Assembly (NCBI GenBank): GCA_030068145.1
Contig: JAPJBO010000067.1
Coordinates: 248,001 to 312,000 of the forward strand
Reading direction: 5' to 3'
DNA from: Diplonema papillatum
Taxonomy: Eukaryota > Euglenozoa > Diplonemea > Diplonemida > Diplonemidae
DNA length: 64,000 nt
Part shown: one piece after another, positions 55,804-64,000 of the stretch
Layout of the letters: every line of letters starts with the position of its first letter
How positions within the stretch are numbered: the first letter of the stretch is position 1
Notes under the pieces: model-generated
Databases searched by the model: none
What the model saw: the letters and a program-made list of their open reading frames with translations, nothing else
What the model was told of the DNA's origin: nothing
Program-made: the position numbers and the translations under genes

Positions 55804-55971
55804 CTTGCCTCATGGTCGGTGTTCTTCCCCTTCGTTTGTTTGTAAGTATCCGCTTTGGTTTCACCCTTTGTTTTCAGATGGAGATGCACGAGCCGACCGG
55901 AGGAAGGGGTCAGCACAAGCCCCAGGTAGCCAAGCCAGTGCGAGAGGCCAGAAGACGCCAGCTCCAATTCC

Positions 55972-56466
55972 TACTACTACTACTACTACTACTACTACTA
56001 CTACTACTACTACTACTACTACTACTACTACTACTACTACTACTACTACTACTACTACTACTACTACTACTACTACTACTACTACTACTACTACTACTAC
56101 TACTACTACTACTACTACTACTACTACTACTACTACTACTACTACTACTACTACTACTACTACTACTACTACTACTACTACTACTACTACTACTACTACT
56201 ACTACTACTACTACTACTACTACTACTACTACTACTACTACTACTACTACTACTACTACTACTACTACTACTACTACTACTACTACTACTACTACTACTA
56301 CTACTACTACTACTACTACTACTACTACTACTACTACTACTACTACTACTACTACTACTACTACTACTACTACTACTACTACTACTACTACTACTACTAC
56401 TACTACTACTACTACTACTACTACTACTACTACTACTACTACTACTACTACTACTACTACTACTAC
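55972..56466 (+). repeat. (TAC)n array 1, about 165 units
   Basis: Pure trinucleotide run between the B-type end of R1 (CCAATTCC) and the A1 repeat of R2 (TGCAGTTTGCTGAGG). All six frames are open (Leu, Thr, Tyr or Ser, Val, stop-free), so coding calls over it are artefacts. Confidence 0.95.
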
Positions 56467-56575
56467 TGCAGTTTGCTGAGGGAACTGGCACAACGAACTG
56501 TCAACATTGCTCGCAACCAACTTCAGTCCACAACATTAGCAGGGTACAAAGTGAGTTGCAAAGGAATAACATTTT
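56466..56575 (+). repeat. R2 split direct repeat A1
   Basis: CTGCAGTTTGCTGAGGGAAC to AGGAATAACATTTT, identical to A2. It lies just before the gag ATG (56586), so it also forms the 5' leader. Confidence 0.9.
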
Positions 56576-56585
56576 GAAGAAAACC

Positions 56586-57626
56586 ATGCCCGTCTTTTCA
56601 AAGCAGTCAGCGACTGGTTACCAGAATTTCGCTGTCCCGGTCGATGTACGCGATGCATTCGAGGAGACCATTGGGCCGACCCTTCCGCGACGGAACATCC
56701 GTCTTTCAGAGGTAGAAGGCTGGGCTATCTTCTTCTTTGGGACCACTCCGGGGGAGGATAGGGCCCATGCACATAAGATTATGTGTGATCTGCTGGAGTA
56801 CAATGCAGGTTCACCTGGTGCCGGACTTGTTGGAGCTTGGGAAGGCTGGAAACTGGCGGCTACATTGGCAGAGGCCGCGACGGTCAACCCGCAGCTGTTC
56901 CGCCGGGTCGTGAAGGGGGCGGGGCTCTGGAAGGAGGATGCTCCAGAGTTGCCCACAGTAGCTGGGACGAGGGCACGGGTGGCTGTCGTTGCACCGTCGG
57001 AGCCCAGCGATGCCTATGTTCCCGAGGCGCTTCCTGAACCGACGACACCACCTGGGGGAGAAGAGCATCTTCAGGGAGCGGAAGTAGCAGACCTGAAGGC
57101 GGAGCTAAGGGCGCTGACCCAGGTCGTCATGTCGTTGGCTGGACGAACCCCTCCGGATGAGAAGGCTGCACGACCGACAAGGTTCCCAGTCGAGGAGACC
57201 GATGTGACGAAGTGGAGCGACGCTCTGGAAAAGGACCCCGAGGGGCTCGCCCTTGCTTTGGAAGTACGGTACGTGGCTGGTCGTAAGCATCTGTCGGGCG
57301 GGGAGCAGCTTGAAAGCGCATTCTCGGCGCTCAAGTGCTGGCTTCTCGCCTCGGCCCAGTTTGAGAACTGGATCGAATGCGCGGAGCAGGTTCGCCTCGG
57401 TCAGGAGCTCCTGATGCAACTCCGCGTCCAATTAAAGTTTGTGGAAGAGGGTGCGCCACGTCGGGAGCTGTTGGACCGGATGCGGCAGCGCGACGGCGAT
57501 GAGCTCGAGCGGGCGACGGCAGGATGGAAGAGGGACGCGCACCGGACGGAGAAGAAGAAGTTCGGTTTCAAACCGAGGGGGAAGGCCGGATGGAAACAGG
57601 GAAACGTCAAGGCCGGGGAAAAATGA
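56586..57626 (+). CDS. R2 gag-like protein
   Basis: 346 residues from ATG (AAAACCATGCCC). N-terminal half folded in character (AVPVDVRDAFEETIGPTLPR, LSEVEGWAIFFFGTTPGEDR, GWKLAATLAEAATVNPQLFR), a Pro/Glu-rich middle, then a second helical domain (WSDALEKDPEGLALALEVRY, QLESAFSALKCWLLASAQFE) and a basic C-terminus (TEKKKFGFKPRGKAGWKQGN) suited to RNA binding. No zinc knuckle. It is the first gene after A1, the usual gag position; assigned by position and composition, not by sequence family. The frame is open upstream through the (TAC)n run, but that part is a poly-Leu artefact. Confidence 0.7.
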   Translation: MPVFSKQSATGYQNFAVPVDVRDAFEETIGPTLPRRNIRLSEVEGWAIFFFGTTPGEDRAHAHKIMCDLLEYNAGSPGAGLVGAWEGWKLAATLAEAATVNPQLFRRVVKGAGLWKEDAPELPTVAGTRARVAVVAPSEPSDAYVPEALPEPTTPPGGEEHLQGAEVADLKAELRALTQVVMSLAGRTPPDEKAARPTRFPVEETDVTKWSDALEKDPEGLALALEVRYVAGRKHLSGGEQLESAFSALKCWLLASAQFENWIECAEQVRLGQELLMQLRVQLKFVEEGAPRRELLDRMRQRDGDELERATAGWKRDAHRTEKKKFGFKPRGKAGWKQGNVKAGEK

Positions 57627-57830
57627 CTGGCGACTCCCCACCTAGGCCTAGACCTGCCAGTTACAAAGCAGAGGTCTCCTCTACCTACAAAGTTCGTTCG
57701 TCGTCCCCTCCCGGCCCGTTACGAGTTCTCTCTCCGGAAGTCTGTCCCGTCTCACCGTCCGGTTGTCGACACTGTGAATCCCTCGCTTTGCTCACCCAAG
57801 CCGTCCACCGGCTCCTCGGAGACCGTCGTG

Positions 57831-61709: not shown

Positions 61710-61994
61710 TTAGTATACGGTAGGAACTGGAGCAGAGCGCATGGCAGGATGAGCACACCACCCGAGCCTACAACAGGAGAAGTCGGGTGGGTTGAGGTGG
61801 GTCTACTGTGACTGATTTTTTCTTCCCGCCCTCCCTTGCCCCCAATGTGATCTCGCCCATCCCATTCGCTAGTATGCAAGTTATCAGGCTTCTGTCAGAC
61901 TGTTCTCTCCTTCCTTCCCTTTCTGATGATGAATGAACTCGATGACCAAAGCCGAGACCGAGTGCGATGAGGCCAGAAGCTAGCTGCCAATTCC
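61710..61994 (+). mobile_element. Solo terminal unit 2
   Basis: Identical to unit 1 apart from GCAGAGCGC in place of GCAAAGCGC. Confidence 0.75.
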
Positions 61995-62823
61995 TACTAC
62001 TACTACTACTACTACTACTACTACTACTACTACTACTACTACTACTACTACTACTACTACTACTACTACTACTACTACTACTACTACTACTACTACTACT
62101 ACTACTACTACTACTACTACTACTACTACTACTACTACTACTACTACTACTACTACTACTACTACTACTACTACTACTACTACTACTACTACTACTACTA
62201 CTACTACTACTACTACTACTACTACTACTACTACTACTACTACTACTACTACTACTACTACTACTACTACTACTACTACTACTACTACTACTACTACTAC
62301 TACTACTACTACTACTACTACTACTACTACTACTACTACTACTACTACTACTACTACTACTACTACTACTACTACTACTACTACTACTACTACTACTACT
62401 ACTACTACTACTACTACTACTACTACTACTACTACTACTACTACTACTACTACTACTACTACTACTACTACTACTACTACTACTACTACTACTACTACTA
62501 CTACTACTACTACTACTACTACTACTACTACTACTACTACTACTACTACTACTACTACTACTACTACTACTACTACTACTACTACTACTACTACTACTAC
62601 TACTACTACTACTACTACTACTACTACTACTACTACTACTACTACTACTACTACTACTACTACTACTACTACTACTACTACTACTACTACTACTACTACT
62701 ACTACTACTACTACTACTACTACTACTACTACTACTACTACTACTACTACTACTACTACTACTACTACTACTACTACTACTACTACTACTACTACTACTA
62801 CTACTACTACTACTACTACTACT
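61995..62823 (+). repeat. (TAC)n array 4, about 276 units
   Basis: 829 bp without interruption, the longest array in the window. Confidence 0.95.
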
Positions 62824-63108
62824 TTAGTATACGGTAGGAACTGGAGCAAAGCGCATGGCAGGATGAGCACACCACCCGAGCCTACAACAGGAGAAGTCGG
62901 GTGGGTTGAGGTGGGTCTACTGTGACTGATTTTTTCTTCCCGCCCTCCCTTGCCCCCAATGTGATCTCGCCCATCCCATTCGCTAGTATGCAAGTTATCA
63001 GGCTTCTGTCAGACTGTTCTCTCCTTCCTTCCCTTTCTGATGATGAATGAACTCGATGACCAAAGCCGAGACCGAGTGCGATGAGGCCAGAAGCTAGCTG
63101 CCAATTCC
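62824..63108 (+). mobile_element. Solo terminal unit 3
   Basis: Carries the GCAAAGCGC variant, like unit 1. Confidence 0.75.
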
Positions 63109-63472
63109 TACTACTACTACTACTACTACTACTACTACTACTACTACTACTACTACTACTACTACTACTACTACTACTACTACTACTACTACTACTACTA
63201 CTACTACTACTACTACTACTACTACTACTACTACTACTACTACTACTACTACTACTACTACTACTACTACTACTACTACTACTACTACTACTACTACTAC
63301 TACTACTACTACTACTACTACTACTACTACTACTACTACTACTACTACTACTACTACTACTACTACTACTACTACTACTACTACTACTACTACTACTACT
63401 ACTACTACTACTACTACTACTACTACTACTACTACTACTACTACTACTACTACTACTACTACTACTACTACT
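63109..63472 (+). repeat. (TAC)n array 5, about 121 units
   Basis: Pure run; its right joint has one T fewer (ACTTAGTAT against ACTTTAGTAT). Confidence 0.95.
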
Positions 63473-63756
63473 TAGTATACGGTAGGAACTGGAGCAGAGC
63501 GCATGGCAGGATGAGCACACCACCCGAGCCTACAACAGGAGAAGTCGGGTGGGTTGAGGTGGGTCTACTGTGACTGATTTTTTCTTCCCGCCCTCCCTTG
63601 CCCCCAATGTGATCTCGCCCATCCCATTCGCTAGTATGCAAGTTATCAGGCTTCTGTCAGACTGTTCTCTCCTTCCTTCCCTTTCTGATGATGAATGAAC
63701 TCGATGACCAAAGCCGAGACCGAGTGCGATGAGGCCAGAAGCTAGCTGCCAATTCC
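63473..63756 (+). mobile_element. Solo terminal unit 4
   Basis: Carries the GCAGAGCGC variant, like unit 2, so variants alternate along the series. Confidence 0.75.
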
Positions 63757-64000
63757 TACTACTACTACTACTACTACTACTACTACTACTACTACTACTA
63801 CTACTACTACTACTACTACTACTACTACTACTACTACTACTACTACTACTACTACTACTACTACTACTACTACTACTACTACTACTACTACTACTACTAC
63901 TACTACTACTACTACTACTACTACTACTACTACTACTACTACTACTACTACTACTACTACTACTACTACTACTACTACTACTACTACTACTACTACTACT
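63757..64000 (+). repeat. (TAC)n array 6, running off the window
   Basis: At least 81 units; right end not seen. Confidence 0.95.

What the first reader, a model, noticed from the sequence alone, without database searches (positions are those of the whole stretch)
55810..64000. Split-direct-repeat YR retroelement feeding a tandem series of solo ends joined by (TAC)n
Seen directly: R2 has A1-genes-B1-A2-B2 order, with A1=A2 over 110 bp. Then four about-285-bp units, each an A-like head, the shared CCCGCCCTCCCTTGCCCCC link and a B-like tail, follow in one orientation. Every B-to-A joint except B1/A2 inside R2 carries (TAC)n of 81 to 276 or more units. Established: PAT/Ngaro elements integrate by tyrosine recombinase through a circle whose joint is B-A. 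Inference: new copies insert into the B-A joint of older ones, building head-to-tail arrays, and the joint itself seeds or tolerates (TAC) expansion. A mobile element that creates its own microsatellite landing site would be new to me.
Basis: partly seen in the sequence, partly recalled or inferred. Interest (0 to 1): 0.8.

Follow-up and report, generated by a model that had tools for sequence, protein, structure and literature searches.

The report
Retroelements nesting in other retroposons' tails
A family of jumping elements lands again and again, facing the same way, inside three-letter DNA repeats left behind as tails by other jumping elements, and so builds head-to-tail rows of elements separated by long repeats.

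Summary
R2 (56467-60795) has split direct repeats; four 285-286 bp A-link-B units follow in one orientation, and every outer B-to-A joint carries (TAC)n (165, 90, 119, 276, 121, 262 units).

That the element makes its own microsatellite is not supported. Among the 49 of 118 link sites read, 18 of 19 readable outer (TAC)n tracts start at a 5'-truncated, TAC-tailed retroposon (families alpha to delta). Alpha alone has 1122 exact tail matches genome-wide, 758 followed by at least three TAC. In the window an alpha copy lies directly before R1, so the row appears to sit in one alpha tail. The four solo units are a duplicated dimer (1 = 3, 2 = 4), not four insertions.

In copies at least 99% like the reference element, 28 of 28 outer A ends and 24 of 24 outer B ends abut TAC. 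In 17 of 17 gene-bearing copies the internal B1/A2 joint has none. Relatives sit in 11-, 31- and 50-bp tandem repeats.

Best reading: a DIRS-order retroelement, probably using a tyrosine recombinase, integrates into pre-existing tandem repeats, mostly (TAC)n tails seeded by other retroposons; stacking follows because the target survives insertion. Recombinase identity rests on motifs only; no HMM or fold match was found.

The parts
52013..52204 (+). alpha-family retroposon 3' part with its ACGACACA-TAC end (carrying a 14-base insert), directly before R1
   Evidence: 93.75% to alpha over 52013-52184; sequence
52205..55971 (+). R1, related element (A ... genes ... B), without A2-link-B2
   Evidence: tblastx to the family reference and to R2; no internal direct repeat of A or B in a self-comparison
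55972..56466 (+). (TAC)165 between R1 and R2
56467..60795 (+). R2, split-direct-repeat element A1-genes-B1-A2-link-B2
56466..56575 (+). A1 repeat
   Evidence: 100% to A2 over 110 bp
56586..57626 (+). ORF1, gag-like by position only
   Evidence: the equivalent ORF of the related family (L036) has no Pfam match
57627..58802 (+). ORF2, putative tyrosine recombinase
   Evidence: R-W-x-E, H-S-x-K-R-G-A and R-Y in order, invariant in 6 of 6 aligned sequences, of which 4 are close copies; HMM, profile and fold tests negative
58850..60280 (+). ORF3, reverse transcriptase with an RNase H part that stops early inside B1
   Evidence: RNase H match far below cut-off (E=0.29); WVDN and VDAS in the translation, comparison with the related family
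60216..60431 (+). B1 repeat
   Evidence: 99.5% to B2
60430..60539 (+). A2 repeat; the B1/A2 joint has no TAC
60540..60580 (+). link, begins CCCGCCCTCCCTTGCCCCC (19-mer found 118 times in the genome)
60581..60796 (+). B2 repeat
60796..61065 (+). (TAC)90
61066..61351 (+). solo A-link-B unit 1
   Evidence: identical to unit 3
61352..61708 (+). (TAC)119
61709..61994 (+). solo unit 2
   Evidence: one substitution from units 1 and 3
61995..62822 (+). (TAC)276
62823..63108 (+). solo unit 3
   Evidence: identical to unit 1
63109..63471 (+). (TAC)121
63472..63756 (+). solo unit 4
   Evidence: equals unit 2 apart from one missing T
63757..64000 (+). (TAC)n, 81+ in the window, 262 in all, then a truncated A end of a further family

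Best explanation
The window holds a row of DIRS-order (putative tyrosine-recombinase, split-direct-repeat) retroelements that insert into pre-existing (TAC)n tracts. The tracts are 3' tails of other, unrelated retroposons. The probable steps are: (1) a TAC-tailed retroposon lands and leaves (TAC)n (shown as anatomy; target-primed insertion is inferred); (2) a circular copy of the YR element, whose joint is CCAATTCC - 14 bases - GGAACTGG, recombines with TAC^TAC in one fixed orientation (ends and orientation shown; circle and enzyme inferred); (3) TAC remains on both sides, so the site stays open and further families insert there, giving head-to-tail rows (shown as anatomy; order of events inferred); (4) exchange between A1 and A2, or by the recombinase between the outer end and the internal joint, leaves A-link-B solos, and unequal exchange in the repeats duplicates them (the duplicated dimer is shown; the mechanism is inferred).
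For: Left edges of 18 of 19 readable outermost tracts in front of an element lie at the 3' end or within the 3' part of alpha, beta, gamma or delta repeats (L010 is the exception, L039 lay at a region edge; L016 and L037 match over about 20-27 bases only; L021, L038 and L048 join inside the family's 3' part). These repeats have a fixed 3' end and varying 5' ends. Of 25 tail matches in the held loci and window, 15 lead into an element, 5 carry (TAC)3-7 with no element (L017, L027, L029, L034, L048) and 5 have shorter or decayed tails; one more free copy is at window 24809-24828 minus. Alpha 18-mer: 1122 genome matches, 758 followed by (TAC)3 or more, reversed controls 0. Ends at least 99% like the reference: 28 of 28 outer A and 24 of 24 outer B at TAC>=2. 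Internal B1/A2 joint TAC-free in 17 of 17 gene-bearing copies. 37 distinct B ends meet TAC, 0 meet GTA. Alpha lies directly before R1. Dimer duplication with TAC spacings 119/276 and 121/262.
Against: The YR assignment rests on motifs seen by eye. Pfam, NCBIfam, PDB-sequence and profile comparisons gave nothing, and the structure model was poor (pLDDT 43) with no fold match. TAC is long beside elements (median 83-96 units) but 3-7 units at the free tails with an intact tract; in the first 100 alpha copies with TAC, a B end lies within 8.5 kb of 3 of 8 long tails but 1 of 92 short ones. So expansion after insertion is not excluded. Less similar copies: 7 of 14 B ends and 7 of 16 A starts do not touch TAC>=2 (in each, one is a B/A joint; one A start was scored as a single TAC), although this class includes the four window units. 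Other families' outer ends were at TAC in 2 of 5 A and 4 of 9 B cases. 53 of 64 long alpha tails have no CCAATTCC-type element within 8.5 kb. Only 49 of 118 link sites were read, chosen by an exact 19-mer.
Confidence: 0.82

Rival explanations
1. The element makes its own (TAC)n: the joint, or the reverse transcriptase on the circle joint, seeds TAC, which expands and then receives new copies.
For: TAC tracts are much longer beside elements than at the free tails in the held loci.
Against: Internal B1/A2 joint TAC-free in 17 of 17 gene-bearing copies. 18 of 19 tracts start in a retroposon's 3' part. 758 alpha copies carry TAC genome-wide against 92 B ends of the CCAATTCC-(TAC)9 type. Relatives sit in 11-, 31- and 50-bp repeats.
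Confidence: 0.07
2. Pre-existing short TAC tails are the target, but insertion promotes their later expansion to 100-300 units, so the element enlarges but does not found its landing site. (Compatible with the main reading.)
For: Elements mostly lie in long tracts; free intact tails in the held loci are 3-7 units. The L029 copy sits in a short tract (14 + 11 units).
Against: 53 of 64 alpha tails of 15 or more units have no CCAATTCC-type element within 8.5 kb (other families were not counted). Duplicated spacers changed only 119 to 121 and 276 to 262. Insertion chance should rise with tract length anyway.
Confidence: 0.25
3. The target is tandem repetition as such (or the chromatin of tandem repeats); TAC is only the commonest such repeat.
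For: Families related to R1, R2 and others sit in 11-, 31- and 50-bp repeats as well as TAC, against 8.5% tandem-repeat coverage of window 1-52000.
Against: Near-identical copies of the main family: 28 of 28 and 24 of 24 outer ends in TAC only. One solo, L042, lies in no visible tandem repeat. Few loci.
Confidence: 0.3
4. The array, or its duplicated dimer, is an assembly artefact.
For: Units 1-2 and 3-4 are nearly exact copies with similar spacers.
Against: Elements joined by (TAC)n recur at many contigs with different flanks and spacer lengths. Spacers of 119/121 and 276/262 differ.
Confidence: 0.08

Closest known systems
SaTar non-autonomous MULEs of guayule and rice (PMC5907723; abstract and passages seen)
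   Same: Elements target microsatellites and form ordered, non-nested rows of different families.
   Different: They are class II (DNA) elements; no split direct repeats, and no retroposon-tail origin of the microsatellite in the passages seen.
Endogenous nimaviruses with a telomere-repeat-specific tyrosine recombinase (PMC10871703; passages seen, abstract included)
   Same: A tyrosine recombinase linked to insertion into one simple repeat, (TAACC/GGTTA)n.
   Different: Large DNA viruses; their recombinases are stated not to be close to those of DIRS; the target is the telomere-type repeat.
DIRS-1 of Dictyostelium (PMC5633606; passages seen)
   Same: YR retroelement, circle intermediate, insertion into repeated DNA and accumulation at centromeres.
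   Different: Inverted terminal repeats; it targets its own copies, not a microsatellite.
Ngaro elements of Cafeteria (PMC8547959; passages seen)
   Same: A1-genes-B1A2B2 layout, solo AB repeats, preference of some types for another mobile element as the landing place.
   Different: They land in virophages, not in (TAC)n; gene order is gag, RT-RH, YR.
DIRS1-like elements (PMC3266345; passages seen)
   Same: Circle joint recombines with a short identical genomic sequence, without target duplication.
   Different: Inverted repeats and internal complementary regions; no tandem-repeat targeting in the passages seen.

Membership tests
YR retrotransposon (order DIRS) | split direct repeats A1-genes-B1-A2-B2 or inverted/internal repeats | tested here: met
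   R2 and the L036 copy (A 120 bp, B 221 bp, 100%)
YR retrotransposon (order DIRS) | encodes a tyrosine recombinase | tested here: inconclusive
   catalytic motifs in order and invariant in 6 of 6, 4 of them close copies; no HMM, profile or fold match
YR retrotransposon (order DIRS) | encodes RT and RNase H | tested here: inconclusive
   RVT_1 E=0.028 for R1 and RT_RNaseH E=0.0017 for the relative, both under the curated cut-offs; WVDN, VDAS and ADLPSR motifs in the relative; no PDB sequence match of note
YR retrotransposon (order DIRS) | no target-site duplication | tested here: inconclusive
   cannot be judged inside (TAC)n; no duplication was seen by eye at the older copies printed
PAT group (as in PMC4157794) | methyltransferase domain | tested here: not met
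   ORF3 of the relative ends with RNase H at the start of B1; no such Pfam match
Ngaro/VIPER group (as in PMC4157794) | split direct repeats without methyltransferase | tested here: met
Ngaro/VIPER group (as in PMC4157794) | internal repeats directly downstream of the YR domain, as in gag, RT-RH, YR order | tested here: not met
   the putative YR ORF precedes the RT-RH ORF and overlaps its frame; the repeats follow RT-RH
Non-LTR retroposon (alpha to delta repeats) | fixed 3' end with short-repeat tail and variable 5' truncation | tested here: met
   alignments; 758 of 1122 alpha tails followed by (TAC)3 or more
Non-LTR retroposon (alpha to delta repeats) | target-site duplications and a partner LINE with the same 3' end | not tested

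The most novel reading that the evidence does not exclude
This clade of YR retroelements recognises tandem repetition itself: its families enter 3-, 11-, 31- and 50-bp tandem arrays of unrelated sequence, leaving repeats on both sides, so that any tandem array becomes an assembly line for head-to-tail rows of elements.
Probability: 0.3. Interest if true: 0.82.

Novelty: new variant of a known kind. Interest (0 to 1): 0.62.

Why it matters
It offers a natural system in which the target rule of a eukaryotic YR retroelement can be read from many near-identical insertions, and it explains how rows of same-facing solo ends joined by microsatellite arise. In the titles and abstract beginnings shown by nine searches of the held library (several lists were capped) and the passages opened, repeat-targeting appeared for MULEs and for nimavirus recombinases but not for a YR retrotransposon.

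Tried and rejected
Self-made microsatellite: rejected on the retroposon-tail flanks and TAC-free internal joints. Four independent solo insertions: rejected, units 1/3 and 2/4 are pairwise identical bar one T. tRNA-derived SINE heads: none found by ARAGORN in 14 loci. YR by HMM, PDB sequence, profile comparison with Cre, lambda Int and P2 Int, and fold: all negative or too weak (RT profile as control). RT by PDB sequence: nothing. One search counted 39 B ends next to TAC, two of them twice because L023 overlaps the window; one search gives 37. Its A-end/GTA count (34) is an artefact of the inverted ends, and its 'no element end' list holds pieces of broken tracts; neither was used. The class 'B/A joint without TAC' (21 A starts) cannot by itself show that joints lack TAC, so the gene-bearing copies were tested separately. 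Genome-wide counts of beta and gamma tails, of all A ends and of R2-type B ends were wanted but did not complete.
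Full report
What is there. R2 (56467-60795) shows A1-genes-B1-A2-link-B2; A1 = A2 over 110 bp at 100% and B1 = B2 at 99.5%. It is followed by four A-link-B units of 285-286 bp, all in one orientation, and each outer B-to-A joint is filled by pure (TAC)n: 165, 90, 119, 276 and 121 units, and 81+ at the window edge, which reaches 262 beyond it before a truncated A end of another family and then other DNA (L023). 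B1/A2 inside R2 has no TAC.

The row is longer than described. R1 (about 52205-55971) is a related element, with tblastx matches over the RT region and without A2-link-B2. Directly before it lies an alpha repeat (52013-52184 at 93.75%), whose usual end ...GGCAGACGACACA-TAC is present with a 14-base insert and runs straight into the A end of R1. So one alpha tail stands at the head of the whole row.

The element family. The window lies in a 271-Mb assembly of 2910 contigs, taken to be eukaryotic from its size and content. The 19-base link occurs 118 times; I read 49 of these sites, in 40 fetched regions plus the window. A related family, represented for comparison by the copy at L036 642-5240 (4599 bp), has A of 120 bp, B of 221 bp and a direct B1/A2 joint. 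Solo copies of 358-359 bp match its A2-link-B2 at 99.7-100%. Its ORFs are a gag-like ORF, then a putative YR, then RT-RNase H ending at the start of B1. R2 itself lacks the last part of RNase H.

Is it a YR element? The second ORF carries R-W-x-E (P2 Int has RWGE, Cre RIAE), H-S-x-K-R-G-A (Cre has HSARVGA, lambda Int HELR) and R-Y, in that order. They are invariant in the six sequences aligned, of which four are close copies. The predicted helix-strand order fits a YR catalytic domain by my reading (recalled), but the model is poor (pLDDT 43), and no HMM, profile or fold search supported it. The family is therefore called a putative YR retroelement of order DIRS, subgroup open: no methyltransferase was seen (against PAT), and YR precedes RT-RH (against Ngaro; definitions from passages of PMC4157794, and PMC8547959).

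Where it lands. For repeats at least 99% like the reference, 28 of 28 outer A starts and 24 of 24 outer B ends touch TAC>=2; the other 21 A starts and 21 B ends of this class are B/A joints without TAC. Because that class is defined by its lack of TAC, I tested gene-bearing copies separately: where RT-RH runs into B1, the next bases are A2 in 17 of 17. Among less similar copies, which include the four window units, A starts were 9 at TAC>=2, 1 at a single TAC, 1 at a B joint and 5 other; B ends were 7 at TAC>=2, 1 at an A joint and 6 other. By eye, four of the five 'other' A starts also show one TAC at a mutated or shifted end (L022, L024, L025, L047); L033 does not. Outer ends of the other families: A starts 2 at TAC and 3 other; B ends 4 at TAC and 5 other; of these 8 'other' ends, 6 lie in the tandem repeats described below and 2 (both ends of L042) do not. 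37 distinct B ends meet TAC and 0 meet GTA, so the orientation to the repeat is fixed.

Where the TAC comes from. In 18 of 19 readable cases the outermost left tract begins in the 3' part of one of four repeat families (alpha, beta, gamma, delta), which share a fixed 3' end and differ in 5' extent. L010 is the exception, and L039 was at a region edge and left out. L016 and L037 match over about 20-27 bases only; L021, L038 and L048 join inside the family's 3' part. Of 25 tail matches in the held loci and window, 15 lead into an element, 5 carry (TAC)3-7 with no element, and 5 have shorter or decayed tails; these loci were chosen for holding an element, so the ratio is biased. One more free copy lies at window 24809-24828 minus. 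The unbiased count is genome-wide: the alpha 18-mer occurs 1122 times and 758 of these are followed by at least three TAC; reversed controls gave 0. 64 have at least 15. By contrast, 92 B ends of the CCAATTCC type meet (TAC)9.

Length and cause. Of the 64 long alpha tails, 11 have such a B end within 8.5 kb downstream. Of the first 100 alpha copies with TAC listed, 3 of 8 long tails and 1 of 92 short ones do (0 of 92 at 6.5 kb). This fits an insertion chance that grows with tract length, but it does not exclude growth after insertion. The duplicated dimer argues that tracts change slowly: units 1 and 3 are identical, units 2 and 4 are identical apart from one T, and the spacers are 119/276 against 121/262.

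Other tandem repeats. A related element in L014 lies inside a 50-bp satellite on both sides. R2 relatives in L013 and L031 end in an 11-bp repeat. In L045 a B end of one family, an R1-like element and an A end of a third family stand in one orientation, separated by a 31-bp repeat. One solo in L042 lies in no visible tandem repeat. In window 1-52000 tandem repeats cover 8.5%. Families related to R1 and R2 are thus found in TAC and in other tandem repeats, which leaves open whether the rule is a short core or repetition as such.

Mechanism. Established for DIRS1-like elements: a circle joint recombines with a short identical genomic sequence without target duplication (PMC3266345, passages). 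Here the joint is CCAATTCC-14 bases-GGAACTGG in both families measured. Rows then grow by new insertions and by unequal exchange. Solos arise by A1-A2 exchange or by the recombinase between an outer end and the internal joint; the sequence cannot tell these apart.

Known relatives in behaviour: SaTar MULEs in microsatellites (PMC5907723, abstract and passages), telomere-repeat-specific YRs of nimaviruses (PMC10871703, passages), DIRS-1 inserting into DIRS-1 (PMC5633606, passages), and Ngaro in virophages (PMC8547959, passages). In what nine answered paper searches showed (titles and abstract beginnings, several lists capped) I saw no YR retrotransposon that targets a microsatellite; the library lacks most subscription papers. 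Verdict: a new variant of a known kind, with a clear correction of the first interpretation.

Noticed in passing
L045 3440-5120: Ends of three element families in one orientation, separated by a 31-bp tandem repeat: the same architecture as the TAC row in another repeat.
   Followed up: partly
L014 1-670 and 5201-6054: A related element sits inside a 50-bp satellite that continues on both sides and itself contains ACAATTCC, like the B end.
   Followed up: partly
L046 4513-5357: A B2/A joint without TAC followed by non-element DNA, as if derived from a circle or a tandem form.
   Followed up: no
L019 3245-4011: Two A-link-B units joined directly without TAC, at a 359-bp period; link spacings in contigs C410 and C877 suggest the same.
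   Followed up: no
L019 3-1511: Open frame with an RVT_1 match under the cut-off (E=2.9e-5), followed by a duplicated flank; perhaps another split-repeat element next to an alpha copy.
   Followed up: partly
window 52180-52193: A 14-base insert (ACTACTATTGCAGT) in the alpha tail that resembles the start of R1's A end, like a footprint.
   Followed up: no
window 44429-44797 and 45627-45885: 16-bp tandem repeat GTTCGGGCGAAGCTAA and relatives; a similar repeat fills L013 1-433.
   Followed up: no
window 17958-19004: 148-bp tandem repeat, 7.1 copies, 99% matches.
   Followed up: no
alpha, beta and gamma 3' ends (L012, L035, L029): They share a short end like GA(C/T)GACA(C/A) before (TAC)n, which may be recognised by one LINE reverse transcriptase.
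   Followed up: no
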